This document shows, in pieces, positions 1 through 14,700 of a stretch of 64,000 nt of DNA; within the stretch, counting starts at the first letter, position 1; every line of letters starts with the position of its first letter. Location: assembly GCA_016180815.1 (NCBI GenBank), contig JACPAN010000005.1, positions 1 through 64,000 on the forward strand, given 5' to 3'. A model generated the notes under the pieces. The model had not been told where the DNA came from. It saw only the letters and a list, made by a program, of their open reading frames with translations, and ran no database searches. The translations under genes were made by a program, and so were the position numbers. Origin of the DNA: Elusimicrobiota bacterium. GTDB taxonomy: Bacteria; Elusimicrobiota; Elusimicrobia; JACQPE01.

Positions 1-549
1 GGGCTTGATCCGATCATGACGGCGGTGATTGATCCGACGGGACGCGTTGCAAACATGGCCCCCTGGTTTGAACAAAGCGTGATCGTCCACCGCGTGCCGT
101 TGTTGTCGGGGCAAACGGTGTACACAAAGCTGGGGAATTGGTTTGCGGGGGGGTGTTGCTGGGGGGCTCCGACGGAGTCGCCGCTCGGCGTTGTTTATAC
201 AAATGCCTTATGTTCCGTTCCGGTTCATTTGAGGGGAATCCCGCTTCATCCCGTGCAGCTTTATGAATCAGCGGGAGCGTTTATTCTTTTTTTAATCCTA
301 AACAGCGTCAAGGATAAATATAAAGGCCAGATTTTTGGTTTCTATATGATCGGTTACGGGATTCTAAGGTTTTGCATTGAATTTTTCAGGCCTGAGAGCA
401 CCCTCAAGGGTCCGAATCTTCCGGGATTGTCGTTCACTCAAACAATCATTCTGTTTTTGTTGATTCCCGCCGGAGTTTGGCTGATTGCGAAAGTGCGCCA
501 GGGCAAAATCAAAGTTGACGTTCAAGAGCCTGTGTCGAATTTAGTTTAA
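1..549 (+). CDS. lgt: Prolipoprotein diacylglyceryl transferase, C-terminal part (cut by window edge)
   Basis: Lgt moves a diacylglyceryl group from phosphatidylglycerol to the lipobox cysteine of prolipoproteins at the inner membrane. The frame is open from base 1, so the start lies upstream. Visible family features are the Gly-Asn then Gly-Cys-Cys-Trp-Gly loop at 133-165, corresponding to the GRxGCFxxGCCYG region of this Lgt subgroup, and the Pro-Leu-His-Pro-Val-Gln-Leu-Tyr-Glu motif at 241-267. Three hydrophobic helices follow (about 274-306, 334-390 and 439-489) and a short basic tail ends in TAA. The next gene starts 8 bases after the stop, suggesting co-transcription. Nothing in the visible half is broken. 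Confidence 0.9.
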   Translation, partial: GLDPIMTAVIDPTGRVANMAPWFEQSVIVHRVPLLSGQTVYTKLGNWFAGGCCWGAPTESPLGVVYTNALCSVPVHLRGIPLHPVQLYESAGAFILFLILNSVKDKYKGQIFGFYMIGYGILRFCIEFFRPESTLKGPNLPGLSFTQTIILFLLIPAGVWLIAKVRQGKIKVDVQEPVSNLV

Positions 550-556
550 TCGGGTC

Positions 557-853
557 GTGGGAAAATTCGTCATTGGTTTCTTAATCGGGCTTGCCGGCGG
601 GGCTGCGGCCGGATGGTTCGGCGCCGGGGTGGTGCCGCCGCCGAAAGAGCTTCAGAAAATATCCAAGGATTTTCAGGCCAAGCTGGAAAAAATGGCCGAA
701 ACGCAAATGAACAGTTTGAGCGAGCACGTTAAAAGAGAGCTGGATCGCCGCATCGATGAGCAGATGAAATCTCTTGACTCCTACTCCAAACAACGAATAG
801 ATCAGACCATCGAAGAAGAGAAGAAAACCCTCCGAAGCAAGCAGAAGCGCTGA
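557..853 (+). CDS. Small membrane-anchored coiled-coil protein
   Basis: 98 residues from a GTG start. Residues about 4-28 form one Gly/Ala-rich membrane helix. The rest (about 30-95) is highly charged with Leu/Met/Ile in heptad-like spacing, so a soluble coiled coil carried on an N-terminal anchor. I recognise no family. It begins 8 bases after the lgt stop and probably shares its transcript. The start is chosen because it immediately precedes the hydrophobic segment and no better one is seen; the Shine-Dalgarno is weak (GGGT just upstream). TGA stop. Confidence 0.6.
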   Translation: MGKFVIGFLIGLAGGAAAGWFGAGVVPPPKELQKISKDFQAKLEKMAETQMNSLSEHVKRELDRRIDEQMKSLDSYSKQRIDQTIEEEKKTLRSKQKR

Positions 854-953: not shown

Positions 954-1637
954 ATGGTCATTGAACAATCAGAGGACCGGCGGCAGGAATTAAAACGCAA
1001 AGCCCTTCTTTTGCTGCTGTTGTTAGGCGGCGGGTTGATGGCTTTGGTGATTTCTTTTTTTTGTTCGGGCGGACAGGCGGGCAGGACTCAGGTAATCAAA
1101 TCAGGGCCCGTTCAGTCCCTGTACCGCAAGATCGACAAAATCGCAATGGCCACCATCGGCCGCCCGTTGTTTTTGGACGCGTCTTATTTTCAGAAGCCGG
1201 ATGAGTCATTGGCCATGATCGGCACGCCCGAGTGGCGGGCGCTTTATGCGCCGGATAAGCCGGAAGACGTGGATAAAAATGATTTGGTTCCCAAGTCCCT
1301 TGTTGTTCCCGAAGGCGGGGGAGAAGCGGGCAATACCCTGGGCGAATCTTCAGTCGGTTTAGCCCAAGGCGGGGGTATCCCAGTCAAGAGCAATTTCCCC
1401 AATAATATAGAGGAAGCATTAAAAGCGGGGAAATTGCGGCCCCTGGCCGGGGGCGGGGCGGCCAATAGCAAGAGGCCTGATCCGCCGTCGCGCCGGGGCG
1501 CTACGGCCAGGCCGGTGACCGTTGAGGAAAGCGGTTTGTTCCCAGGCCGGGGCCGATCAGGAGGCCGGAAGCCTTCGGGCAAGGCGAAAAGCAGTTCCAG
1601 ACCGACGACGCCGAGCACGGCGGCGCCGGGGCAATAA
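954..1637 (+). CDS. Single-pass membrane protein with Gly/Pro-rich tail, unknown function
   Basis: 227 residues. Residues 1-15 are charged, about 16-36 are a Leu-rich membrane helix, and the remainder is predicted extracytoplasmic. A short ordered-looking part (about 45-100, with Tyr-Arg-Lys-Ile-Asp-Lys and Pro-Glu-Trp-Arg-Ala-Leu) is followed by low-complexity Gly/Pro/Ser/Arg sequence to the stop. There are no catalytic motifs and no recognised family. Its layout (N-terminal anchor plus disordered tail) is shared with the next two genes, which suggests they belong to one surface or envelope assembly. ATG start, TAA stop. Confidence 0.6.
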   Translation: MVIEQSEDRRQELKRKALLLLLLLGGGLMALVISFFCSGGQAGRTQVIKSGPVQSLYRKIDKIAMATIGRPLFLDASYFQKPDESLAMIGTPEWRALYAPDKPEDVDKNDLVPKSLVVPEGGGEAGNTLGESSVGLAQGGGIPVKSNFPNNIEEALKAGKLRPLAGGGAANSKRPDPPSRRGATARPVTVEESGLFPGRGRSGGRKPSGKAKSSSRPTTPSTAAPGQ

Positions 1638-1765
1638 TAGGCCAAAAAGACGAAGGGACTCCCCAAAAATAGGACTAAAGTCCCCTGGTAAAAAAGCCGG
1701 GGCTGGGTTAAAATAGAAGCAATAGGATAAGCCTCGTTGATAAGGGGGTATATTCTTTTTAAGCC
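1638..1765 (+). other. Intergenic spacer with GGACT palindrome
   Basis: 128 bases between two same-strand genes. It holds GGGACT at 1655-1660 and the palindrome GGACTAAAGTCC at 1672-1683, the same motif seen at 3282-3293 and 8579-8592. A TAAAAT hexamer at 1709-1714 could be a -10 element but has no convincing -35. No RNA gene is seen. Confidence 0.5.
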
Positions 1766-3274
1766 ATGAATAGGAATTTTCTTTACCGTTCAGCGAATAT
1801 CAATGCGACTAAACTGATCGCCGGCGTTCTTGCCGGCGGCATCGGCCTGGGCACTTCCTTCGGGCTATTGGCCCGTTTTTCTACGCAAGGCTCGGTCATG
1901 AATTTTATGGGGCTTAAAAGCCAGGACGTGACCAAGAGCTTCCGCAAAACGCTGTACCGGACGGCCAATTCCGAGATCATCGAACAGGGGGCTTCTCAGC
2001 CGTCGGCGGTGATGGCGGTTCGGGGTACGCCGGGGAATTTGACCTATGATATTTCGTTCATTCTTTTCGGCAAGCCCAAGGATTGGACGGATAAGGCCTC
2101 GGCTAAACCGGATAAAGCCGCGGATGCGGTCTCGCCCATCGATTTGGTGAAAAAAGAGACAAAGCCTGTCGTCGCATCGAATGTCACTTCAACGCTCTTG
2201 GATATGGGCGTTGAGAACACCCTTGAGCCGCTGCCCTCGATCGGCGACACGGCGTCGGGCAATAGCAGCAAAAGAAACGTCGAATCTCCGGCTTTGGTGG
2301 GCGCGGAGAAGCGTTTAGCTAAAGCAACGCCCATGACCGAAGATGACGCCCGGCAGCGCTCGAACGCCCGGCCCAATTTGGAGTTCGCCAAGGGGCGTCA
2401 GGCCGTGAATCCCGGCATCAATACGGCGCGCGGCGCGGTTCAACGGCGGCAACGGCTTATTCAAGAATTGCGCGGAGCCGTCGCCTTGGGGCAATATGCC
2501 CTGGGCGCCAGCGACGCGGACAGCGCGCTTTCATTGAGCATGGCGCCGGTGGCGGGCATCAATATTTCCCCGGCCTTGGAAAATTTGGCTTCGCGTGGGG
2601 AGATCGGCGGCATTGCGGCTGAAAATGTGAATACATCGGCCGGAGATTTGCTGAATACTTTAGGCGGCGGATCGGGTTTGTTGAGCACCGGGGCGGGTCC
2701 CGCTGCCGGGGGCTCTGATGATTCCGGCGGGGATACCGGAGACACCGGCGGCGATGTATTGACTGATTTAGGGGACGTTGTTTTTGGGGGCGGCGGTTCG
2801 GACGGGGGCATTCTCACCGACCCCGGAGGATATCAGGGCATACCCCCTAAATACTATGACGTTCCTTTGGGAGATATCGGGGGGCTTCTTGGGGGCGGAG
2901 TGTTGGGCGGTCCGATCATTATTACGGGTACCGATCCGGTTTGCCCGATATGCCAAGGAACGGTTGATCTTGATCCTGGTTTGATCGTCGGCCCTGCGGC
3001 GCCGACCGGACCCATCGTTCAGCTTGATCAAACAAGCCTGCAGTCATCCGTTTCTCTAACCGATTTGCAAAGCTATTCAGCGCCGTTGGCGCTGAATAAT
3101 ACGACGACGATAACCGGAAGCAAGGCGACTTATTCCGGCTCCACCACGCTGCTAAACAGCGGACCGGCGTTGAATCAAACTTCCCTCAACAGCACTCAAC
3201 TCAACAGTCCTTCTTTGCCTGCCGCAGGCGGGACAAGCGCCATTCCCGGCGGCTCAAAAGGCTTCGGTTTTTAG
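1766..3274 (+). CDS. Membrane-anchored Gly/Ser/Thr-rich protein, unknown function
   Basis: 502 residues. After a short basic head, residues about 16-36 form one Gly-rich membrane helix or uncleaved signal. About 45-110 looks folded, with a beta-like stretch ending in Ser-Phe-Ile-Leu-Phe-Gly. The middle is charged and helical. The C-terminal 220 residues are Gly/Asp/Ser/Thr-rich, with two Cys in a Cys-Pro-Ile-Cys pair (about residue 393) and a run of Ser/Thr/Leu/Asn repeats at the end. No family is recognised. ATG start, TAG stop. It probably contributes to the same envelope system as its neighbours. Confidence 0.6.
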   Translation: MNRNFLYRSANINATKLIAGVLAGGIGLGTSFGLLARFSTQGSVMNFMGLKSQDVTKSFRKTLYRTANSEIIEQGASQPSAVMAVRGTPGNLTYDISFILFGKPKDWTDKASAKPDKAADAVSPIDLVKKETKPVVASNVTSTLLDMGVENTLEPLPSIGDTASGNSSKRNVESPALVGAEKRLAKATPMTEDDARQRSNARPNLEFAKGRQAVNPGINTARGAVQRRQRLIQELRGAVALGQYALGASDADSALSLSMAPVAGINISPALENLASRGEIGGIAAENVNTSAGDLLNTLGGGSGLLSTGAGPAAGGSDDSGGDTGDTGGDVLTDLGDVVFGGGGSDGGILTDPGGYQGIPPKYYDVPLGDIGGLLGGGVLGGPIIITGTDPVCPICQGTVDLDPGLIVGPAAPTGPIVQLDQTSLQSSVSLTDLQSYSAPLALNNTTTITGSKATYSGSTTLLNSGPALNQTSLNSTQLNSPSLPAAGGTSAIPGGSKGFGF

Positions 3275-3281
3275 GTAAAAA

Positions 3282-3311
3282 GGACTAAAGTCCTATTAAC
3301 AAAATAGGACT
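3282..3311 (+). repeat. Overlapping GGACT/AGTCC inverted repeats
   Basis: GGACTAAAGTCC (3282-3293) overlaps a second hairpin in which AGTCCTATT (3289-3297) pairs perfectly with AATAGGACT (3303-3311) across a five-base loop. The second stem is followed by TTTG. The two structures share AGTCC and are mutually exclusive. This may be a weak terminator for the upstream gene or a copy of the repeat also seen at 1672 and 8579. Confidence 0.55.
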
Positions 3312-3319
3312 TTTGCCCC

Positions 3320-3348
3320 TTGATAGTCACCTGTTCCGGGCTTAAAAT
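3320..3348 (+). promoter_or_regulatory. Candidate sigma70-type promoter
   Basis: TTGATA (3320-3325) and TAAAAT (3343-3348) are separated by 17 bases, close to the TTGACA/TATAAT consensus. Transcription would start near 3355, leaving a leader of about 100 bases before the GTG at 3453. The leader holds two small hairpins: CAGCC/GGCTG at 3389-3403 and GGTTG/CAACC at 3410-3423. Confidence 0.5.
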
Positions 3349-3440
3349 TAAGGTAGTTATGCAACCCTATTTGACGGGTATTTTCGGCCAGCCCGGCCGG
3401 CTGTGGAAAGGTTGAAGGCAACCCATGAACCGATCAGGGC

Positions 3441-3445
3441 GGGAG
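3441..3445 (+). promoter_or_regulatory. Ribosome binding site of the 3453 gene
   Basis: GGGAG lies seven bases before the GTG at 3453 and fixes this start, which places a charged cytoplasmic head ahead of the membrane helix. Confidence 0.6.
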
Positions 3446-3452
3446 AATCATC

Positions 3453-5309
3453 GTGGCTGATGAAAAAGAGGGGCATCATTCCCCGTCTTTCACCCGTTTG
3501 TTGCGCGGGGCTCAAGGTCCTGAAAGCCATGCCAAGGACGTTCCTAAATCCTCAACTCTGCACCGCGAACCGGTCAAACGGGAAGAGGAGAAAAAAAGAA
3601 AACCCATTGTTTTGCCTTTTTCCAAAGGCGAGGGCGAATCCGGCCTTTTTTCCATCGGTTACCGGGAATGGGCGTTTTTGTTCGGGTCGACTTTGTTGTT
3701 ATTCGGCGGCATGGCGGCGGTGCGATTGTTCGCCCCAAAGGAGCCTTCCTTGACGCCGGCGTTTGAGGTTGCGCCCACGGATATGGAAGAAGTGACGCGT
3801 CCTCCGGAGGGCAGCGAACCCACGGATGAAATCGTGACCTCAGCCGCTGGGTCCAGGGATACGACCCGCCTGGTTCAACCGCTTTCGGAGCTCGTCCCCA
3901 AACCTAAAGAAGACAAATCCAAGGCAGCAGGCGGTCCGCTCGATCAAACAAAAGAAAGTCCGTTTTGGGCGGGGCTAAAAGAAGCGGAGAAACAAACTGG
4001 GAAACCACCTCGATTACCCGGCATGCTGGGCGCATTGAATGCGGCTTTAGGCGGCTTGGGTGGGGCTTCATCGGCCGCGCCTCCGGTGAGGATTATGTCC
4101 GGGGATGAAATCGCCAGCCGTTTGCGAAATTTGCCTGCCGGATCTTCGCGCGGAGGACCGGGCGGGCGTTTGAGTTATTCAGGCGCTCAGAATATTCCGG
4201 GCATGGGCGGCAGCGGCCGGCGATCGAGAACAACGTCGAGCAGGGATGCGGTCAGGAAAGCGCGTGAAGCGGCGCGGCAAGCTTTGGGCGCCTTGCATGG
4301 GCAGCCCGAACAGACCGCGGCCAATGCCGCGGGAAAATTCGGCGAATCAACGGGCGGCCGCGAAACGAATCAAGGACCGGGCGGCGGAGCCGTGACCAGC
4401 GGGGATACGCCTAAACAGGATAAAAGCGAAGGCCCCAGCATTGATTACAAGATTGAACGCGATCCGATTGCGGATCATATGCGCAAAGCGCTTTTTGACT
4501 GGGAGCTTGAGAAGCAGAAAAAAAGGGACAATATTACTGATTGGCTTTGGGCTTATGATGCCTTGGGCGAGGGGTTAAAGACCATCGCGCAGAAAGGATT
4601 GGCCGAGCCGCTGGCGAATTTAGTCGGGGGCGCGGTTAATGCTTTAGCCGGCGACGCTCCGCCTGAACCCACGCAATTCGTTTGCCGTCGCGGACCGCGC
4701 TCAACGACCTGCACGACAAGCACGAAAGAGTTTTTAAGAGGCAAAGTGCCTTTGTCGGATGATGAATTAAAGACGGCGTCGATTATCGGCGTCGAACATA
4801 TGTGCGGCCGGGATCCGTGCGCGGATCCCTTCGGAGCGGACGCGGAAAGTTGCATCCCTCAGGTTCGGGTGCGCTATCAGGCCTCCTCGACCACTGAGGC
4901 GAAAGAGAAAAGCACCAGCACGCAGTGGCAAGAAAGCACGTTTACGCTCAACGGCGTTCGCTGCTCCGATATCGAGAGCGTTACCGGCGCGCGAAGGGGC
5001 GAGGATGACAGCGCCGCGGCCGCGCCCGGCGCCGGCCCGGGCGGCGATTCGAGCACGCCAACTCCTCCGGCCGTTCCTCCCGCGCCCACGGCTGAGGCGG
5101 TGGTTAATAATTTGCGCGATATTCCGGAATTCAGGGACCGGGTGACTACGGCGACGCTCAACGGCAAGTCCCCGGATGAGTTGCGGGATATCAACGATAA
5201 AGCTTTGGCGCTTGCGGCCATGGACTGCGCGGCTGCGCCGGTTCCTGGGGATTGCGAGTCGGACCGTCAAGCGCATATTCAGGAGTTGAACCGGCTTCTT
5301 GGTCTTTAG
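3453..5309 (+). CDS. Single-pass membrane protein with long periplasmic region, unknown function
   Basis: 618 residues from GTG. Residues 1-65 are a charged cytoplasmic head. About 70-92 is a membrane helix (Trp-Ala-Phe-Leu-Phe-Gly-Ser-Thr-Leu-Leu-Leu-Phe). The rest is predicted periplasmic: a Pro/Glu/Lys-rich linker, a Gly/Ser-rich stretch (about 190-330), an ordered helical and Cys-containing segment (about 340-510, with Cys-Gly-Arg-Asp-Pro-Cys and further Cys), an Ala/Pro linker, then a helical end carrying two more Cys. Head-helix-linker-domain order recalls TonB or GspC-like trans-envelope adaptors, but I see no homologous motif and do not assign one. TAG stop; the next gene starts 63 bases on. 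Confidence 0.65.
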   Translation: MADEKEGHHSPSFTRLLRGAQGPESHAKDVPKSSTLHREPVKREEEKKRKPIVLPFSKGEGESGLFSIGYREWAFLFGSTLLLFGGMAAVRLFAPKEPSLTPAFEVAPTDMEEVTRPPEGSEPTDEIVTSAAGSRDTTRLVQPLSELVPKPKEDKSKAAGGPLDQTKESPFWAGLKEAEKQTGKPPRLPGMLGALNAALGGLGGASSAAPPVRIMSGDEIASRLRNLPAGSSRGGPGGRLSYSGAQNIPGMGGSGRRSRTTSSRDAVRKAREAARQALGALHGQPEQTAANAAGKFGESTGGRETNQGPGGGAVTSGDTPKQDKSEGPSIDYKIERDPIADHMRKALFDWELEKQKKRDNITDWLWAYDALGEGLKTIAQKGLAEPLANLVGGAVNALAGDAPPEPTQFVCRRGPRSTTCTTSTKEFLRGKVPLSDDELKTASIIGVEHMCGRDPCADPFGADAESCIPQVRVRYQASSTTEAKEKSTSTQWQESTFTLNGVRCSDIESVTGARRGEDDSAAAAPGAGPGGDSSTPTPPAVPPAPTAEAVVNNLRDIPEFRDRVTTATLNGKSPDELRDINDKALALAAMDCAAAPVPGDCESDRQAHIQELNRLLGL

Positions 5310-5360
5310 ACATGACAGATTTTTACGGCGGTTGGGAACTGCATAGGGAAGGGTAAATTC

Positions 5361-5367
5361 GAGGAGG
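5361..5367 (+). promoter_or_regulatory. Strong ribosome binding site of the 5373 gene
   Basis: GAGGAGG is five bases from the GTG at 5373 and is the clearest Shine-Dalgarno in the window. Confidence 0.85.
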
Positions 5368-5372
5368 ATACC

Positions 5373-8300
5373 GTGCGTAACGCTAAGTTAAACCCCAGGA
5401 ATGGGATTTTTATTTTATTGGGCTTGATCAGCCTGGCCCTTGGGCCTGTGACTGTTTTCGCCGATGATCCGGCGAGTTCCTCTGAAATCAACGCCGTGGC
5501 CGGTAATTCCGCGGTTGTGGCCTATCCGTTATCCTCCGCTGATTTGGAAGGCGCTACGTCCGCCGAGATTGCAGCCATCGGCAGTCACCTTGAGATTTTG
5601 AACAATCGGCATGCTGATTGTTATTTAAGTGATGGATGGTTTACTTCCGGGCGATCCAATGCAGACGGCAGTGAATTAGATTGTACTGATGCCGGATCAG
5701 CTATCGGCGGAATCAATGCGATTAAAAGCGCCATTGCGGCCCGCCGAAGCTCGGCGGCATCCGGATCTACCGGAGGGTCCACTCCTGGAACCGGAGCAAC
5801 CGGCGGCGGGACGCCCGCAAGAACGACGACTCCCCGTCCGACGGGCGCCGGCCGTGCGCGCGCCGGGATCAGGCATACGGGAAGCAAGAGCGGCGGCGAT
5901 GCCGCCGAAGCCAGCGCAACATTCGACGGCACGAGCGGGCATGGATCGGGGACAGGCGGCACCACGACACCGGGTGCTACCGGAGCCGATCCTGCCATCG
6001 TTCCTGTTCGGGCCGATGGCCATGGAACGACCGGCGGCGCAACGCCTGGTTCAGGGCTGACCGGCAGTGGTCATGTAGCCGCAGCGCGCGGAACCGTTCC
6101 TCCTCCCCCGCCTCCCGGATCGCCGGGAGCCGGCGGCGTCGGTGGCAGCGGAACTTCAGGCGGCGGTTCAGCTTTTGCCGGCGGGCCGGTCACGGTTTCG
6201 CCGGCCGGCGCTTCAACGTTGGTAGGCGGATCTTCCGGGGCCACGGCTTCCCCGACCCGTCGCGTTTCAACTTCGGGCGCGCTTTCGAGTTCCGGCGCCG
6301 CGTCTCCGGATATGTCCCGAACATCTCCGGTTGTGGTGCGGGACATTCCCGTTAGCGCCATCAACGATGCGGATAAGCCTTTCGATAAAGCGTCTCTTCT
6401 GGTCGGCGTGATGCAGAGCTCAACCGGCACCAATCCCGAGGCCCGGTTGGCTGGCGCTCTTTATCTTTACGAGAAAAATTTGGCCAGCGGCGCGGCCACA
6501 GCGGCCCGGCATTGGGCCGGCGTCGTTCCCATGTGGGAGAGCTTCGGCAACAGGAAATTAAATTTTCAAATCGCGCCTACTTTGGCCTCAGGGGCCCGCT
6601 ATGTTTTTAACGTGCAGGTCCAGGCCGCTTCCATCGGCGCCACCGATTCTCCGGATCGCCGGGCGATTTTGGATCAGATCAGGCAGTATGAAGTTCTGCG
6701 CGATTCATTCACGGCCAGGCTCGGCGCCGTTGAGGCCGCTGTGCCGGTTAGACCCAGCGCCGCGAACAGGACTCAATTGAATGCCTTGATCAAGCGCGCC
6801 AGAAACCGCCGGGAAACGGACTCGGCCCTTCGCTTGTTCTTGCGCGTTGTCCCGGATGAGGACCCGAGCGGTCCTTGCGTGGGGCTTGATCCTGAATCAT
6901 TCGTCGCTTGCCAAACCGCGATCCGCGATGCGGCTCAGGCCATGAATGAATTGGTGACGGTCATGAACAATGTCACCAACAACACGCGATTTAACCGGTT
7001 GAAAGTTGACCCTGCCACATTAAGGGGCAATGAACGCATCAGGGCTGAAAAATACCAGGCGAATATTCCGATTCTGGAGCAGAAGCTGGACTTTTTGAGG
7101 GCCACTTATGCCGGCGGCCGGGACGCGGCGCAAGCCCGAATCAACAGTTTGAACCAGGATTTGGAGCGGCGTTTTGAGGTTGTGGTGAATGATTTCCGCA
7201 AAGCCTTTCTTGCGGATCATCGCAATGACTTGACTTTGGCTCACAATACCGCAAATTTTAGGCAGCGTTTAAGGAAAATCAGGCACGAGGTCCGGCTCCA
7301 AGGACGCGGGCATCCTGGCGTTGACGCTCAATTGACCGGGCGTGTCGTCACCAACCTAAACGACCTTAATGTTTATGTCAGCAGCCAAAGCTTGGCGACG
7401 GTTCAAGCATCAAGCATTACTGCGGAAACCGTCCGGTCCATCATGGCGCTTCGCCAGTATTTAAACAGCGTGACCATGACGTTCGTGGTGTACCCGTCGC
7501 GGGTGAAAGAAGAGATCAACGCCGGTTTGACGGGTGAAGGGTTTGCGGCCGGAGCCTCAAGCTCCACGCCGCGTTATATGATGGAAACTCTGCCTATATT
7601 CCGGCCCATCAGCACCAATAGCGCCACCAGCGACTCTTGGCAGTATATTGAGGCCAATGCCGGATCAAGGCCGATCTCGATCAGCCCTCTGAATTCTCCT
7701 TTCATATCCAGCCGGGATGTCGGCCGCGATTCTTCAGGCCGGGCTACGGGCCCGGAATATCGAGCGTTGGCGATTTTTGACGTTGGGACGGGCGCGGATT
7801 TGATGCGCCCCCGCGTCGTTTATTTCCGCGCGGATTCCGGCGACCGGACCAGTAATGCCAATATCCGTTTGGGCCGCGGCGCGGATTCGCCTTGCGCTTC
7901 GATCGAGAGCGCGGGCCTGGCTGCGGGACGTTATCGCTGGAACACGGCGACCGTCAATTGTTCGACGGGGCAAGTGATCGTGGCTCCGCCGCCGGCGGCG
8001 GCAGTGCCCGCAAGCACAACCACGGTTGTGGGCACGACCCCGGCAGCTCCGGCCAGACGCTCCGGCAGCGGCACTAGAAGAAGAAGCGGCAGTGGATCGG
8101 GCACAGCGACATCAACAACGACCACGACCACGCCCACACTGGGAACTCTGCCCTGCAATCCGCCCAGTCACCTTCATGACGGCAACTGCATGGATGATGC
8201 TTCAAGCAATCCGACTTGCGCAGAAAATCAACATTTCCATGCACGAACCGGTCTTTGTTACAGCGACTCCAGCACGTCCGGCGGTTCTTCGGTCGCGCCG

Positions 8301-8549
8301 CTGGCTAATCCTGAGCCCGGAAGCACGACGGCGCCCGTGGAGGCTTGCACAATTTCAATCAGCGGCACCAGCGCAAGCACGTATCGGGCGAGTTGCGGTT
8401 CGAATTCCGTGTTGTTAACCTCCGCCGGCGGCGTTGCGAACACATACACCGAATCAGGGAGCACCCCGCCATGGGGACATAAGCATACGTATGTGATTCA
8501 GGGCGATACCAGGAGAATTCTCAATCGTCCGGCCGGCTGTACGCATTGA
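5373..8549 (+). CDS. Secreted Gly/Thr-rich protein with helical core and Cys/His-rich C-terminus
   Basis: 1058 residues. A textbook signal peptide (basic head, Phe-Ile-Leu-Leu-Gly core) ends near Val-Phe-Ala|Asp-Asp, about residue 31. Next come a Cys-containing segment, a long Gly/Thr/Ala/Pro low-complexity region (about 125-330), and a mostly helical, Arg-rich core (about 340-700). The C-terminus (about 870-1058) is Thr/Ser/Pro-rich with two similar Cys/His units, Cys-Asn-Pro-Pro-Ser-His-Leu-His and Cys-Ala-Glu-Asn-Gln-His-Phe-His, each with a second Cys further on. Many Cys imply disulfides in the envelope or outside. The function is unknown. It is the last gene before the giant frame and probably part of the same system. 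TGA stop. Confidence 0.7.
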   Translation: MRNAKLNPRNGIFILLGLISLALGPVTVFADDPASSSEINAVAGNSAVVAYPLSSADLEGATSAEIAAIGSHLEILNNRHADCYLSDGWFTSGRSNADGSELDCTDAGSAIGGINAIKSAIAARRSSAASGSTGGSTPGTGATGGGTPARTTTPRPTGAGRARAGIRHTGSKSGGDAAEASATFDGTSGHGSGTGGTTTPGATGADPAIVPVRADGHGTTGGATPGSGLTGSGHVAAARGTVPPPPPPGSPGAGGVGGSGTSGGGSAFAGGPVTVSPAGASTLVGGSSGATASPTRRVSTSGALSSSGAASPDMSRTSPVVVRDIPVSAINDADKPFDKASLLVGVMQSSTGTNPEARLAGALYLYEKNLASGAATAARHWAGVVPMWESFGNRKLNFQIAPTLASGARYVFNVQVQAASIGATDSPDRRAILDQIRQYEVLRDSFTARLGAVEAAVPVRPSAANRTQLNALIKRARNRRETDSALRLFLRVVPDEDPSGPCVGLDPESFVACQTAIRDAAQAMNELVTVMNNVTNNTRFNRLKVDPATLRGNERIRAEKYQANIPILEQKLDFLRATYAGGRDAAQARINSLNQDLERRFEVVVNDFRKAFLADHRNDLTLAHNTANFRQRLRKIRHEVRLQGRGHPGVDAQLTGRVVTNLNDLNVYVSSQSLATVQASSITAETVRSIMALRQYLNSVTMTFVVYPSRVKEEINAGLTGEGFAAGASSSTPRYMMETLPIFRPISTNSATSDSWQYIEANAGSRPISISPLNSPFISSRDVGRDSSGRATGPEYRALAIFDVGTGADLMRPRVVYFRADSGDRTSNANIRLGRGADSPCASIESAGLAAGRYRWNTATVNCSTGQVIVAPPPAAAVPASTTTVVGTTPAAPARRSGSGTRRRSGSGSGTATSTTTTTTPTLGTLPCNPPSHLHDGNCMDDASSNPTCAENQHFHARTGLCYSDSSTSGGSSVAPLANPEPGSTTAPVEACTISISGTSASTYRASCGSNSVLLTSAGGVANTYTESGSTPPWGHKHTYVIQGDTRRILNRPAGCTH

Positions 8550-8769
8550 GATAAACCAACCTCGATCTCCGACGGACCGGGACTGAAGTCCCAAAAGTTC
8601 ATAGGTCTGACGACTCACTATTTTGGTACCGAAGGTCACTGGTCAAAATCCACGCCGTGGCGTATCTTATAGATGACGCTTGTTAAACCGAGCGTTGGGA
8701 TTGGGAGGGGAGAGAATGCTAATTGGGTAACGCTTGTTACGCGTTCTGAGGAATGCGCAACGGTAAGGG
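8550..8769 (+). other. 220-base leader region of the giant gene
   Basis: It contains the palindrome GGGACTGAAGTCCC (8579-8592), a hairpin GTAAC-GCTT-GTTAC (8727-8740) and, over the proposed start, GCTGA-CTCG-TCAGC (8778-8791), which could affect initiation. A weak promoter candidate is TGGTCA (8640-8645) plus TATCTT (8663-8668) with 17-base spacing. No tRNA, small RNA or recognised riboswitch is seen. Confidence 0.4.
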
Positions 8770-8770
8770 G
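8765..8770 (+). promoter_or_regulatory. Shine-Dalgarno AAGGGG deciding the giant gene start
   Basis: An in-frame TAA at 8764-8766 sets the upstream limit. AAGGGG ends five bases before the GTG at 8776, making that a better start than the GTG at 8770. The only later ordinary start before the signal peptide is ATG 8794, which lacks a Shine-Dalgarno. Confidence 0.5.
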
Positions 8771-11700
8771 TGCATGTGCTGACTCGTCAGCGAATGAAGC
8801 GAGCAGACTCGTTCGAACATTGGTTTTCGACCCGTCGGAGCCAATCGCCCGTTTTTCAAAAAGATTTTGAAACCCAGAGTTACCGCTGGGGGGGATTCAG
8901 GATCAAGAAAGAAAAAATTTTCGTTCTTAATCCCAAATCCGCAATTTCCCTCCTCATCCTTATCGCGCTCCTGATCACCACCCCCGGTTTAGACTTTTAT
9001 CAGGTTTTCGCCCAGATGATCGTGGTGGACGATACGGTGGTGGATTGCTCGGTAGTGCCGCACCCCGCATGTCCGAATAGGGACAGAGGCGAACCGGCGG
9101 GCCGCGGGGGCAATTCCCCCTCGGGGACAGCCCCGGTCGCGTCAGAACCTCCCCTGGTTGATTCTTCAGAACAGCCGGCCAGCGCACCGGCTCAACCGCC
9201 TGCGGCGACGTTGGAAGCGATTCGCGCGCGTCTTGAAGCCGCGGGCATCACGGCTCAAGGCGAGGCGGACAGCGGGTATCAATTGCTGTTGGCCATGCTC
9301 TGGAGCCGGGAAAGCCAGGCGCCGCGCGAACTCTACAGAACCTTGGAAGGCCCTCTCTCCCGCAATGAGCCGCAAGCCATCGAATTTTTAAGGGAAGTTC
9401 TCGAAGCCAATCGCGATTACGCGGCCATGGAGGCCGCCGCCCAATCTCATAGCCGGCCCAATGTCCAGCAAATGGGCATGGATCGTTTGAACGAGCGTTT
9501 GAACGAGATGATCAATCGCCGGCCTTATCGCGATTATTTGACCCCTCTGGACAATGCCCTGAAAGGTTTGGTTGAAGACCAAACCGCCGAAGGCCTCCGG
9601 ATCGATCGGGTGGACCAGGAGTTAAGAGCGGTCGGCGTTGATCGCGCCTGCGCGATTCGAGACCCGGAGACCAACCAATGCGTGGAAATGCCTTTGGAAT
9701 GGTTCTACGATCAATCCGAGCGGCGTTTTACTCCCCTGACCTTGACCGTGGAGCGGGCGCGCCTCTCCGGAAAAGGCCAAGTCATTCGCGATCTTCTCGT
9801 TGATTCGGCCCGCATCGTGGTTGAGGCGCAACAGGGGCGTTACCTGGAACCGGGCAGTATGGCCGGGAATCTGCGTTTTTTGACCATCGACGAATCCCAA
9901 AAACCCGCTTACGTCCACCAGAGAATAAACCAACTGTTCGAGCGGCGCGAGGATTACCGGGAATTCGCCTCCGCCTTGGAGGGTATCCGTGACGAGATGG
10001 CTCCTTATTACCGGGTCTCAGCCGGGTTAAGACGCTTGCGGGGCCCCGACGGAAAATGGGTCGAAGATTACGTGCCCGGCGAAGAGAATGTTTTGGACGG
10101 CGACCGGCGCGCTTTTATAGAAATGGAAGACGGGCAGCGCGCCCGCCTTGTTGTCATCGATGGCACGGATCAGCGCCAGGGCAACCACCCGACCATGTCC
10201 GTTTATCAGGTAGCGCATTTGGATACGCGGCGGGTGCGCGATTATTTGACTTCAAAAGGGATTAATCCTTACGGCCGGCCGCTTGAGCAGCTGCTGGCTG
10301 AACAAGGCATCACCCTCGCCAATATCGAGCAATTCATCCCAGGAGCTAGCCGCCCAGCGGGCATGACACAGTGGCGGGTTTGGGACCAAGCCAAAGGCGA
10401 TTGGGTTGACGCCGGACCTCTCCCCCAGGCGTCAGCGGATGAATTGGCCGGAGAGGCCAAGAGACGGGCGGAGGAGTCGTCAAGTTTCCTATCAACGCTC
10501 GGCCATGCCATGGGCGTGGTGGGCAATGAGCTGGTCAAGCTGCCCGGCACCGTCGCGGGCTTGGGTATTTACGCCGTGGGTTCGGCCGCGGGCGGGCTCG
10601 GCATCATTGATGACGAAACCGCGGCGTTCACCCGCTACCTTGGCGGCAATATGATGCGGGACAATTTGATTTCGCGCACGGCCTTGAGAGTCGCCGGGAC
10701 CACGGATGAATCTTTTATGCGATCTTTGATGACGGATCGCGATGAGCAATTTTTCGAAGGCTGGGTTGAGGTGGACCGCGATCAAGGCTTAAACAAAGAT
10801 TTCAAGTTGGCGGGCGGCGATTATGAAGCCGCGGTTACGTTGCTTGATGCTTTCGACCGGCAGCGCCCCATCACGGACGAAGACCGCCAAAATACCATCA
10901 ATCGCATCAATACCTATAACATGGGCCAGGTATTCCTGGAAAACGCGGCCTTAGCCGACGCGCGCGGAGATCACGAAGAAGCGAGTTCCATGCGGCGCAA
11001 TTTTTACATTCATACCGCGTTAAGTACCGTGGCCGGGGCCATGGTGTTCGGCAGCGCCATGAACGTGGCGTTTAAGGGTTTATCCCGCACATTGGCGGCT
11101 AAAAGCGTCTGGCTCGACCGGGGCGCTCGCTTGGGCATCGCGGGCGTGATGATGGCGCCCATGGTTTGGGAATCCGGCAGGAACGCCGTCGAGTTTTTCC
11201 GCCTCGGCGACAATGAGGCGTTAAATCGCGGCGGGACGGTCCCGATGGTTTCCATGTGGCGAGACCAGCATGTCGGCCAATTTATCTCGGACGCCACCAT
11301 GGCTGCGGTTATTTTCCACGGCGCTTATGAAGGTTTGCGCGGACGCCCGACGGTCATCAGCCGGGCCCTTGAACGCGTCGACGCTTTTGTCAACCGCGCA
11401 CCGGGCATCCGCAATCTGAATCTTCAATCCCGCTGGTGGTACGGCAATTTTAAACCCGCTGTTCGCAATAGCGAACCGGCAGCCGGGGTGGTGGAAACCG
11501 CGGCCGCCAAGGCGCCTGTTGAACCGGCAGTTGGGGCCCAACCAACGTCGCCGCAGCCTGTGGTCTCCGCCCCACCGGCCTCTCGGCGTTTAGCCAGGGC
11601 GCCTCCGGCCCAAGGGTCCGGCGTGGCGCAAATGCGCCGGGGCGCCAAAGGCGAGACCCTGCAGAACCTTGAAAATGCGGCGCAAGAAGCGCAGCGCGTC

Positions 11701-14700
11701 AGCCGGGATTTGATTAATGAGACGAACCCTATTCTTGAATCAGTCAAGGATTTGCCCAAAGAGGCGTCGTTGGCCCGCGCCGCTCAGGAAGTTTGGGGCG
11801 AGTTGGCCCAGCAGCATGCGGTCACGCCCAGAGGTTCGGGGCAAGTGGCCCTGTCCATGCACTTGGTCCTGGGCCGAGGCGTGCGCGCAGCCACGGCCTT
11901 CGGCAAAACCCTCTCTGCTTTGGTTTCGGCGCGCGCCTTTAGAAAGGTCAAGCAAGGCCAGGCCGTGGTTATCATTTCCAAGACCAAGGATCAAGCAGGG
12001 CAATACACCACGGGCAGCGTTCCTTCAAAAACCGGCGCCGAGGTGCCTTACCGTAATATCGAGAACGCTGCGCACGGCGATCTTCTGTATGAGCGCGGCC
12101 AAGCGCGCGGGGATTACGCTGAAATCATCGGGGCTTTGGAGCGCGGCGAGACCGTTTCCATGTCCCAAAATACCTGGGGTCATTTAAAAACCGCGTCGCT
12201 CTTTAATCCTCAGCTGCGCGCCGCCAGAAAAAATATCGGATTGGTGATTGCCGATGAAGCCCAATGGGTGGCTAATTCCCGCGTGATTTACGTCATCGCT
12301 CAGGCTGCGGACAAGCTGTTCCCATTTAGAAAAATTGAGCGAGCCTCGCGCATCAGGCAGGCGCTCGAGGCCTTGCCTGAAGTGGCGCGCGATCAGCTTG
12401 ACGCCGTAAAAACCCCGGCTGTTTCCTGGGAGGTTTCTTTGGACGGCCGTCCGGCTTTAAACCAAGCCGCGGTCAGGGCATTAACCGGCCAAGGCACGTG
12501 GACCGGGTGGATTCAGCGGCTTCTGGGGCGCAAATTCCGCGCAGATCGCGTTGAATCCGTGGGCAGGGCCATTTGGGAGAAAAGAAACGCCAGGCAGCCC
12601 TGGTCCAAACCCGATGCCCAGGGCATGATTCACACCACGGACCCGGCGGGCGCGGCCCAGCCTCTTGAAACCCGCTTCCAGGATCCTTATTACGAGGCCG
12701 CGGCTTATCTGCTTGAAAATTTTACGGCTGATCAAATTCGGGGCAAAATAAGCACCCGCAGGACGCAAAGTTCATCGACGTTGCCTGAATCGTTCGCTGA
12801 TTTGCCCAGGGACGCCACCATCTCCGCGATGTCCGGGTCCCTGCAAGCCGTGGCTGAAATGGTGTCGGCTCAAATCGGGACCAGATTAGTTGATTTGCCG
12901 GGCGCGCCCGGCTTAGGCACGCGACATGCGCCTGCGAGCATCCGCATCGAAGGGACGCCCGGAGAAGGCGTCGCGCAAATTTGGGGGCAAGTCAGGAATT
13001 CGCTTAAACGCGGCGCGGCCTTGGTTGTGGATGTTTCCGGCGAGTACGGCCGGATTTTGGCTGAGACGGCCAGGAAAGAAGGGAAAACAGTTTACGAGAT
13101 CAATGCGCATACTCCGGAAGGGCACACGGCGGCTCGCAACGGGCTTTTAGACATCGCTCATCGCGCGGCCGAGGAAAAAGCCCTGGTCATCGACTACACC
13201 AAGCGTTCCATCGAAGGCGTTGACTGGAAAGGCAATGTGGATACGCATGGCTTGGTGGATTTTTTGAATGCGGTTGAAATCGAGCAGATGTTGGGCCGTG
13301 GCGCCCGGCGCCCGAACACGGAATCCTTCGGGCATCTTTACTTCAGCGAGACTTCCGCTCTAAGCGTGGGCGGCCGTTTGGCTTCTTTCCTGAAAGAAGG
13401 CCCCTTGGTCGCGGAATTGGGAAAGAAACTTGAGAATTTGAATCGTTTGGCCGAGGAGGGTAGTTCAGGAAGGGCGCAAGTTTCTCAAGCATTAAGCCTG
13501 CTGCAAAAGGCTAAAGAGCGGGGCGTGGCGTCTCTTCTCCCGCAAGAACGGGTGGAGCTGGCCTCTTACATTGATTTAGCCAGGTCCAAATCAATGGATG
13601 CCATCAATCAATACCATCAGAATATCCATGCCCAGATGATGATTCGCCCTCTGCAGGAGGCCATGATCAGAGCGCAGGAGATTAAAGCGTCCCAAGGCCT
13701 CTCCAATCTTTTAGCCAGGCGCCGCGCAGCCAGGGAATTGCCACGCCTTGAAAAAGTTTATGAGCAAGCATTGAACCGGGGCCGCTCGTTGGGCGAATTG
13801 GGGATTAAAGAAGGCGTTTACGAGTCGCCGGCTCAGATTATCAATCAAGTCACCCGGCAAATGGCGCGGCTTTCTAAACCGGTTATCAAGCGGGCTTTGC
13901 GGCGCGCCAAGAGCGGCGAGGTTAAAGCCGCTCTTGAAAACAGTTTGGCTCAAATTGAAGCCGTGGAGCGGGCCGTCAAAGAAAATAAGCTGCCGGATGG
14001 CACGGCGCCGACATCATTCGCCCGCGCGCAGACGCTTGTAGAGTCTTATGCCCTGGGGCTTCGTTTGGCCGAGGAAGTGATTTTGCCCAGGTTGGAAGTC
14101 CGGGTCACCGAATCCGTCATCGTTAAAGCGTCCAATAGAGTCAATCAGATTAAGAACACGCTCTCCGATTGGCGGACGAAGGGAACCGCCGGTCAAAAAG
14201 TTTTAGGTTGGGGAATCCCCGTTGCCTTGGGCGCCGGGCTGTCCGTGGCCACCCCGCTTCTGTTGGGCAGTTTAATCCCGGCTCTGCCGGTCGCCGGCAT
14301 GTTCGGCGCTTGGACTTTGCCTGTGTTGGGCGCCGTGGGCGCTGCGGGCAGCGTGTTCAAGGCTTTTCGTCATGATAAGGACCAAAAGGCCAAGAATTTG
14401 GCGGCTGAGCTCAGAGAAAAAGTCAAGCAAGCGGCCGTTGAAGTCGACGGTCAAAAGGTGACGGCGGATGATTCTTCTGTTCATGAGATTGCTTCAGCGC
14501 AAGAGGCGCTTCGCAATGACGAGCTTCGCGTTGTTGTGGCGGTCAGAAACGCCCAGTATATCCCAACGCCGCAGCGAGACAGCCATTTTGAAAAAACCGT
14601 TATTGAGGCCAATGAAGCCCAGGTCCTGGGTTACAACGATAAGCACGAGCTTTTATTGGCGTTGCCCGAGAATCGGACTGCTGACTTGAAACGGTCTCTT

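What the first reader, a model, noticed from the sequence alone, without database searches (positions are those of the whole stretch)
954..8549. Four consecutive unknown envelope proteins upstream of the giant gene
Three proteins with an N-terminal membrane helix and disordered Gly/Pro/Ser tails, then a 1058-residue secreted Cys-rich protein with paired Cys/His motifs, all on the same strand and leading into the giant. They look like dedicated partners, perhaps a surface anchor or secretion conduit.
Basis: inference. Interest (0 to 1): 0.5.

Follow-up and report, generated by a model that had tools for sequence, protein, structure and literature searches.

The report
Tad-pilus accessory genes beside giant gene
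Four unnamed envelope proteins in front of a giant bacterial gene appear to be the far end of a long gene cluster for a Tad-type pilus, a known attachment machine, which suggests that the pilus and the giant protein may be deployed together.

Summary
The four genes are real and unnamed (no Pfam, NCBIfam or PHROGs family reaches its cut-off). 'Cys-rich' is overstated: 13 Cys in 1058 residues, 7 of them in the last 131. The organism belongs to the Elusimicrobiota.

They are not a stand-alone block. A neighbouring contig, which meets the window inside lgt, carries part of tadC, TadG-like, TadE-like and FtsH genes and seven N-terminally anchored, Gly-rich array ORFs. Other contigs carry CpaB, secretin, CpaE/CpaF and TadB. 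So the four genes are the distal end of a Tad (tight adherence) pilus locus. Anchored arrays lie downstream of the TadG-like gene in other Elusimicrobia families too.

The link to giants is real but loose. An ORF of at least 2,000 aa lies at the array's distal end in 7 of 11 readable loci. One same-family genome keeps all four genes with no giant there; another has the giant without p618.

A DosR-like dyad (GGACTwwAGTCC) precedes p502, p618 and the giant, and cut-off ORFs with the giant's N-terminal module in this genome and in another genus. It was not found exactly in G001, G003 or other families.

Most likely: fast-evolving accessory proteins of a Tad apparatus, perhaps co-deployed with giant proteins. 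Function is inferred from context only.

The parts
1..549 (+). lgt (prolipoprotein diacylglyceryl transferase), 3' part; its 5' part is at the end of contig C26
   Evidence: Pfam LGT profile positions 124-237 here, 4-86 on the C26 end
557..853 (+). p98, small protein with one N-terminal helix
   Evidence: ORF and hydropathy
954..1637 (+). p227, array-type protein: N-terminal helix 18-36, Gly/Pro/Ser-rich
   Evidence: homolog in G001; G003 counterpart by position, similarity only E 0.028
1672..1683 (.). dyad GGACTAAAGTCC, 94 bp before p502
1766..3274 (+). p502, array-type protein: N-terminal helix 17-35, Gly-rich, CxxC conserved in three genera
   Evidence: 3 of 235 class genomes
3282..3293 (.). 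dyad GGACTAAAGTCC, 171 bp before p618
3453..5309 (+). p618: 74-residue charged tail, helix 75-93, Gly-rich part with the FGE motif shared with other array proteins
   Evidence: best profile partner is the protein in the same slot of family f8
5373..8549 (+). p1058: signal-peptide-like start, Gly/Ser/Thr-rich first part, C-terminal Cys/His stretch
8580..8591 (.). dyad GGACTGAAGTCC between p1058 and the giant, 190 bp before the first start codon of the giant
8770..62034 (+). giant, 17,754 aa: signal-peptide-type N-terminus, PLD, subtilase, M48, MGDG-synthase-like, DUF885, MscS-type, AAA/Clp, M50, M14, DUF5117/DUF4953 domains, 84 helices by hydropathy
22207..22227 (+). prepilin-type motif inside the giant (GFVSVEV, F at residue 4481)
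41827..41847 (+). prepilin-type motif inside the giant (GFASVEV, F at residue 11021)
47146..47166 (+). prepilin-type motif inside the giant (GFALVDV, F at residue 12794)
55741..55761 (+). prepilin-type motif inside the giant (GFVLIEI, F at residue 15659)
62063..64000 (+). M16 peptidase (continues beyond the window); an M16-type gene also follows the giant in G003, there by my reading

Best explanation
The four genes are the distal, fast-evolving accessory genes of a Tad (tight adherence) pilus locus. p227 and p502, and by a shared motif also p618, belong to an array of inner-membrane proteins, each held by one N-terminal helix with a long Gly/Pro/Ser-rich part on the outer side; p1058 is exported by a signal peptide. 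They probably build or line the periplasmic and surface part of the Tad apparatus, or dock its client. A LuxR/NarL-type response regulator, perhaps the one encoded in the locus, probably binds the GGACTwwAGTCC dyads and switches on some of these genes together with giants, so that pilus and giant are deployed together, plausibly on contact with other cells as for the Myxococcus Kil system. Shown by sequence: Tad core genes, gene order within contigs, recurrence of arrays, dyad positions. Well supported but inferred: the C26-window join inside lgt and the C84-C27 join. Inferred: topology, role in the apparatus, which protein binds the dyad, co-deployment with the giant.
For: Join: C26 ends in the 5' part of lgt and the window starts in its 3' part, at matching profile positions. 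C26 alone carries the 3' part of tadC, a TPR protein, kinase- and regulator-like genes (by reading), a TadE-like protein, FtsH, a TadG-like protein and seven array ORFs leading to lgt. C33 carries RcpC/CpaB, secretin, a CpaE-CpaF fusion and TadB. In G003 one contig runs from TadE through TadB, TadC, kinases, regulator, TadG-like, TadE-like and FtsH into two array genes. BLAST links a674, a373, a383 and p502 in all three genera. N-terminally anchored ORFs follow the TadG/TadE/FtsH genes in 14 of 18 Tad loci read. The FGE motif links p618 with array groups a373, a502 and a472. p618 and the family-f8 protein in the same slot are each other's best profile match among 22 groups (80% and 72%). Dyad: 3 in the window against 0.02 expected; 17 in the genome against 3 for the control; 36-92 bp before ORFs with giant-type N-terminal regions on C2, C10, C31 and in G002; one-mismatch forms before three array genes of G003. 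Regulators of the G003 and G001 loci have a GerE domain.
Against: No functional data. TadG-like has no Pfam match and the TadE-like protein of C26 is below cut-off. tadC is interrupted in this assembly. In G001 and G003 the step from the contig with the first array genes to the contig with p227/p502 rests on gene order; no overlap was found. I found arrays by walking downstream of TadG, so arrays elsewhere were not tested. Array homology across families rests on architecture and position; p227, p502 and p1058 have no confident partner outside f1, and f10 arrays are less Gly/Pro/Ser-rich (16-28%). Dyads: none on C26 even with one mismatch, none in the G001 contigs held, none exact in G003 and none with one mismatch around its giants on C27, none exact in the eight other-family stretches scanned.
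Confidence: 0.55

Rival explanations
1. One reading: the four proteins are dedicated partners of the giant (surface anchor or secretion conduit); the Tad genes upstream are incidental.
For: Direct adjacency and dyads in the window; in five genomes of family f8 the tailed protein and the signal-peptide-type protein are followed by a 2,609-2,972-aa protein, and all five of these match the 5,008-aa giant of G003 by BLAST (best E 2e-9 to 6e-18).
Against: G001 keeps all four without a giant at the locus; G003 has the giant without a p618 match; two f10 genomes have arrays without a giant.
Confidence: 0.22
2. The array and these proteins are minor-pilin tip subunits of the Tad pilus, like the Kil tips of Myxococcus.
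For: Location near TadG-like and TadE-like genes; variable tips are described for Tad pili (PMC12075869, passages).
Against: None of p227, p502 or p618 shows the G/xxxxE prepilin cleavage motif before its helix (sequences, by eye); p618 has a 74-residue tail before the helix.
Confidence: 0.1
3. Ordinary low-complexity surface proteins that hitchhike in an operon, with no shared function.
For: Low conservation (27-45% to G001 by alignment for p227, p502, p618, p1058), low complexity, no family.
Against: Conserved order in three genera, anchored ORFs in the same place in several families, dyads in front of several of the genes.
Confidence: 0.13

Closest known systems
Tad (tight adherence, Flp) pilus loci
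   Same: RcpC/CpaB, secretin, CpaE/TadZ-type plus CpaF/TadA-type ATPase, TadB, TadC, TadE and a TPR protein. Tad systems in Elusimicrobia were reported before (PMC6668835, one passage).
   Different: Extra array of anchored Gly/Pro/Ser-rich proteins, an FtsH-type protease and sensor kinases inside the locus, and often a large or giant gene at its end.
Myxococcus Kil system (contact-dependent killing by a Tad-like apparatus)
   Same: A Tad-type machine with many accessory genes of unknown function (PMC8460266, PMC12075869; passages).
   Different: PMC8460266 says that TadG and TadD are missing from Kil and that FHA proteins abound (passage); here TadG-like and TPR proteins are present, and FHA domains were not searched. 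No killing is shown here.
Giant ORFs of Omnitrophota with Tad complexes (Velamenicoccia)
   Same: Tad complexes and giant multi-helix ORFs in the same group, read as predation or parasitism traits (PMC10066038, passages).
   Different: The passages seen do not report that the two are neighbours; here they share one locus in Elusimicrobiota.
DosR/DevR regulon box
   Same: Core GGACTWWAGTCC of TTSGGGACTWWAGTCCCSAA (PMC2275270, passage); the site at 8580 reads GGACTGAAGTCC. A LuxR-type response regulator is in the locus in G003 and G001.
   Different: The kinase of the G003 Tad locus has dCache and HAMP domains; binding not shown.

Membership tests
Tad pilus locus | CpaF/TadA ATPase (T2SSE) with CpaE/TadZ-type domain | tested here: met
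   771-aa protein on C33: T2SSE E 2.3e-59, CbiA E 2.9e-13
Tad pilus locus | TadB and TadC platform proteins (T2SSF) | tested here: met
   TadB on C33, TadC in G003; in G000 the T2SSF part of TadC is on C26 but the gene is interrupted
Tad pilus locus | RcpC/CpaB and secretin | tested here: met
   PF16976 E 6.2e-17, PF00263 E 6.6e-40 on C33
Tad pilus locus | TadE pseudopilin | tested here: met
   G003: PF07811 41.7 bits, cut-off 22.9; the TadE-like protein on C26 of G000 only 16.1 bits
Tad pilus locus | TadG | tested here: inconclusive
   TadG-like in 38 of 60 genomes, own included, but no Pfam match; label by position and N-terminus, from recall
Tad pilus locus | Flp major pilin and TadV/CpaA prepilin peptidase | not tested
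   not searched
Tad core proteins (the four genes themselves) | match to a known Tad protein family | tested here: not met
   no Pfam or NCBIfam match; they are locus accessories, not core Tad proteins
Kil-type minor pilin tips | prepilin cleavage motif before the N-terminal helix | tested here: not met
   sequences of p227, p502, p618, read by eye
DosR-type regulon | dyad with the DosR core upstream of the genes | tested here: met
   before p502, p618 and the giant in the window; not before p227 or p1058, and not found exactly in G001 or G003 stretches
DosR-type regulon | binding by a phosphorylated LuxR-type regulator | not testable with these tools
   regulators with GerE domain in the G003 and G001 loci; no binding data

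The most novel reading that the evidence does not exclude
Tad pilus, anchored array and giant form one co-regulated contact weapon, and this giant is a polyprotein: a prepilin peptidase cuts it at internal prepilin-type sites (GFxxxE/D plus hydrophobic helix) near module borders, releasing several pilin-anchored enzymes that the apparatus displays or extrudes. Four convincing sites and one weak match are found against 0.13 expected, with a pattern written after the sites had been seen. Against it: no such site in the homologous G003 giant or in four other giants or giant pieces.
Probability: 0.07. Interest if true: 0.9.

Novelty: new variant of a known kind. Interest (0 to 1): 0.6.

Why it matters
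To my knowledge giant bacterial proteins of this kind have no established export route, regulator or partners. If they belong to Tad loci and share a regulator with them, the question 'how are giants deployed?' becomes testable: one regulator, one dyad, one apparatus. It would also extend the idea of Tad pili as predation machines, studied in Myxococcus and Bdellovibrio (PMC8460266, passages), to Elusimicrobiota, and it gives a first context for an otherwise nameless set of envelope proteins. The paper searches made listed none whose title or abstract start, as shown, reports giant genes inside a Tad locus; the main preprint on giant genes (bioRxiv 10.1101/2023.11.21.568195, seen only as a reference in PMC12057145) is not held, so this is no claim of priority.

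Tried and rejected
Structure: AlphaFold2 of p1058 and p618 from two-sequence alignments gave mean pLDDT 33.2 and 39.5; no fold search was run on such models.

Common box among array proteins: an unbiased 10-residue search found mostly charged low-complexity words (observed 157, 16 shuffles, largest 155), and a profile of a 'SLGFIKG' box gave mostly weak p-values (p227 of G000 0.021, p502 of G000 0.395, p618 of G000 0.865). Not used as evidence. The FGE motif was seen by eye first and then counted: 10 of 27 f1 proteins, 0 of 46 f8/f10 proteins; 10 of 73 in all against 1.71 expected by shuffling.

p1058 homologs: no profile partner outside f1; the protein in the same slot in f10 is a TPR protein, so only the position agrees. 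The f8 large protein does not match the window giant by BLAST at E 1e-4. The hhalign score of the f8 profile to the G003 5,008-aa giant (99%) came with a degenerate two-column alignment, so I rest on BLAST.

Weak hits dropped: p502 in G043 (three stops inside, not returned by the profile); p618 in G011 (20.5 bits, profile positions 123-322; not inspected).

In GC-rich genomes the ORF lists picked wrong frames; searches use one strand, searches also an Arg filter. These lists are my own ORF picks, not annotation. Helix calls use a Kyte-Doolittle cut-off of 1.6; with it the N-terminal helix of the f8 p618-type protein is called in 2 of 5 genomes.

Two of the three dyads were noticed in the terminator list before counting, so the Poisson value (1.6e-5) is post hoc. 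Of the 17 genome sites only the 7 in stretches I held were placed; 10 were not looked at. The site on C2 falls inside an overlapping ORF of my list.

Full report
OBSERVATION. The four ORFs stand at the stated coordinates, all on the + strand, with gaps of 128, 178 and 63 bp between them and 220 bp before the 17,754-aa giant. One N-terminal helix each in p227, p502 and p618, high Gly/Pro/Ser (27-31%) and a signal-peptide-like start on p1058 are confirmed. p1058 is not Cys-rich overall (13 of 1058), but its last 131 residues hold 7 Cys and the paired Cys/His stretches. No family reaches its cut-off for any of the four, and p618 and p1058 have no significant PDB match.

ORGANISM AND DISTRIBUTION. 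The p618 profile found one locus in the GTDB genome collection, in an 'Elusimicrobia bacterium' groundwater MAG, on a contig with the same length and match start as G001:C44. The p502 profile matches 3 of 235 genomes of the class, all in the window's own family f1. p618 matches 3 of 60 genomes, one of them (G011, other family) weak and not inspected. p1058 as a single query matches only itself in 60, although its 27% homolog exists in G001, so that search was not sensitive.

THE LOCUS. Gene names here are my reading of the sequence unless a Pfam call is given. The window contig starts inside lgt; contig C26 of the same genome ends inside lgt, and the two pieces match profile positions 124-237 and 4-86. 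Read towards the window, C26 carries the 3' part of tadC (T2SSF), a TPR protein, membrane and kinase-like proteins, a response regulator, a TadE-like protein (below cut-off), FtsH, five other ORFs, a TadG-like protein and seven array ORFs. Contig C33 holds CpaB/RcpC, a secretin, a CpaE-CpaF fusion and TadB and runs out of tadC after about 50 codons. In G003 one contig, C72, runs from TadE through CpaB, secretin, CpaE/F, TadB, TadC, TPR, kinases, a regulator, TadG-like, TadE-like and FtsH to the first two array genes. Contig C84 holds further array genes, the p227-position and p502 homologs, tatC and an oxidoreductase; that C72 precedes C84 rests on gene order, as no overlap was found. C84 and C27 overlap by about 193 bp, with three differences by eye, inside that oxidoreductase gene. 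C27 goes on with tatD, a 965-aa and a 14,645-aa ORF, an M16-type peptidase, a ROK-type protein, a 5,008-aa ORF and pyrD-pyrF-pyrE-purM. In the window the order is p227, p502, p618, p1058, giant, M16 peptidase, ROK-type protein and the same pyr/pur genes. In G001, contig C22 runs from a regulator through TadG-like, TadE-like and FtsH into the array, and contig C44 has an array gene, p227, p502, p618, p1058, then 461-, 348- and 1174-aa genes and the pyr/pur genes, with no giant; C22 before C44 is again by order only. BLAST at E 1e-3 links a674, a373, a383 and p502 across G000, G001 and G003; a502 and a472 between G000 and G003; a440, p227, p618 and p1058 between G000 and G001. The other pairings rest on position. 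The G000 and G003 giants are homologous over many segments, mostly colinear.

CLASS-WIDE PATTERN. TadG-like proteins occur in 38 of 60 genomes, the own one included. I read the downstream side in 18 of them, chosen by contig, not at random. N-terminally anchored ORFs of this kind follow in 14 of 18 (G009 and G047 with a single one; in the f10 genomes G012 and G020 they are only 16-28% Gly/Pro/Ser). G002 was cut by a contig end, and G029, G049 and G051 show none with my filters. In 11 of the 14 the distal end is readable (not in G009, G024, G057). An ORF of at least 2,000 aa is the next gene, or comes after at most four others, in 7 of 11: G000, G003, G018, G040, G043, G052, G059. In G047 a 17,603-aa ORF lies 11 kb further on the same strand. 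In G001, G012 and G020 there is none in the stretch read. No background rate was computed. The five f8 genomes show one pattern: a tailed protein (794-874 aa), a signal-peptide-type protein (871-1121 aa), then a 2,609-2,972-aa protein (two small ORFs between in G040); being one family they are not five independent events. The tailed protein is the best profile partner of p618, and the reverse (80% and 72%; hhalign pairwise values, not calibrated on a database), while p1058 has none. All five large f8 proteins match the G003 5,008-aa giant by BLAST (best E 2e-9 to 6e-18) but not the window giant at E 1e-4.

GIANTS IN THE FAMILY. The giant's N-terminal module (signal-peptide type 'ITTPGLDFYQVFA', then DCS..HPxCP) recurs in ORFs cut by contig ends on C10 and C31 of the same genome and, diverged, in G002; G003 has a variant. 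Whether the cut-off ORFs are giants is not known, though C31 holds a 5,940-aa ORF just before. C2, C10 and C32 carry complete ordinary-sized proteins similar to giant residues about 140-390. In G001 a 646-aa and a 1350-aa ORF carry parts homologous to the giant near an M16-type gene on another contig. p618 is not found in G003, which has two large ORFs; no p502 or p618 was found in G002, which has giant-like pieces but is 81% complete.

REGULATION. The dyad GGACTnnAGTCC occurs three times in the window, all in the spaces of this gene group (1672, 3282, 8580), where 0.02 are expected; the genome has 17 sites, a reversed control 3. The sites are 94 bp before p502, 171 bp before p618 and 190 bp before the giant's first start codon. 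Others lie 85 and 83 bp before the cut-off module ORFs on C10 and C31, 36 bp before a 351-aa paralog of the giant's N-terminal region on C2, and 82 and 92 bp before two module ORFs in G002. One is in front of pyrD and a divergent gene (C5:76502). Against generality: no exact site in the G003, G001 or other-family stretches scanned, and none on C26 even with one mismatch. In G003, C72 and C84 have eight one-mismatch sites (shuffle means 0.97 and 0.40): four lie 54-117 bp before array genes, two before another ORF, two inside genes; C27 with its giants has none. With a two-base centre the dyad is a poor RNA hairpin, so a protein-binding site is the likelier reading (inference). The core equals that of the DosR box, TTSGGGACTWWAGTCCCSAA (PMC2275270, passage), except for the centre at 8580. 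The Tad loci of G003 and G001 encode a response regulator with a LuxR-type GerE domain, and the G003 locus also sensor kinases. That this regulator binds the dyad is inference.

HOW IT WORKS. The Tad core is established by Pfam; that the four proteins serve it rests on conserved position, on the motif shared between p618 and array proteins and on architecture. Their helices would hold them in the inner membrane, with long flexible parts outside, next to a secretin-type channel; p1058 would be a periplasmic or surface part. Lgt and an FtsH-type protease in the locus fit envelope assembly and its control. The giant begins with a signal-peptide-type stretch and carries many hydrolase domains. With Tad-mediated prey contact known from Myxococcus (PMC8460266, PMC12075869, passages), and Tad plus giant ORFs linked to predation or parasitism in Omnitrophota (PMC10066038, passages), co-deployment on contact is plausible but unproven.

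AGAINST. tadC is split in this assembly by other sequence, so the apparatus may be dead in this strain or the assembly mosaic. The contig joins are inferred. No expression, interaction or phenotype data exist here.

NOVELTY. Tad systems in Elusimicrobia are known (PMC6668835, one passage) and giant genes there are known (PMC12057145, passages). New here, as far as the listings go, are the array, its tie to large or giant genes in one locus, and the dyad.

Noticed in passing
window giant, residues 4481, 11021, 12794, 15659 (weak: 6198; near miss: 10061): Internal prepilin-type motifs (GFxxxE/D plus hydrophobic stretch) near module borders: 5 hits against a mean of 0.13 (largest 1) in 200 block shuffles, 0 in the reversed protein; 0 in the G003 14,645-aa giant and four other giants or giant pieces.
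   Followed up: partly
G000:C33 end (L084) and G000:C26 (L057:7915-10029): tadC is interrupted: residues about 4-52 near the end of C33 run into other sequence, and residues 88-329 on C26 are fused in frame to a DEAD-box helicase ORF. Insertion or assembly mosaic.
   Followed up: partly
window 62063-64000; L042; L055; L056: An M16-type peptidase gene lies close downstream of the giant in G000 (Pfam) and G003, and near giant-like ORFs in G001:C87 and G002:C44 (by reading).
   Followed up: no
L033/L041-L044, L055: The window giant's modules are spread over two large ORFs in G003 (14,645 and 5,008 aa), and a few appear in ordinary-sized ORFs in G001 (646 and 1350 aa), which suggests growth of giants by gene fusion.
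   Followed up: partly
G047:C11 (L097, L102, L103): Another giant ORF of 17,603 aa with only 4 predicted helices and 25% Gly/Pro/Ser, 11 kb after a short Tad array; no BLAST match to the window giant at E 1e-4.
   Followed up: no
G000:C5:76502 and ten sites on C2, C3, C7, C10, C12, C13, C15, C22, C23: The DosR-like dyad also stands between pyrD and a divergent thioredoxin-like gene (by reading); 10 of the 17 genome sites were not placed.
   Followed up: partly
window 5373-8549 C-terminus; L009:6424-9036; L009:9060-10445: HxH followed by Cys recurs at the C-termini of p1058 (GHKHTY...C), its G001 homolog (HKHRYCC...C) and the next G001 gene (HQHFLCC...C); seen by eye.
   Followed up: no
G000:C26 (L054:11695-17174): In G000 five ORFs, among them glycosyltransferase- and methyltransferase-like ones (by reading), stand between FtsH and the TadG-like gene, whereas G001 and G003 have TadG-like, TadE-like, FtsH in a row.
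   Followed up: no
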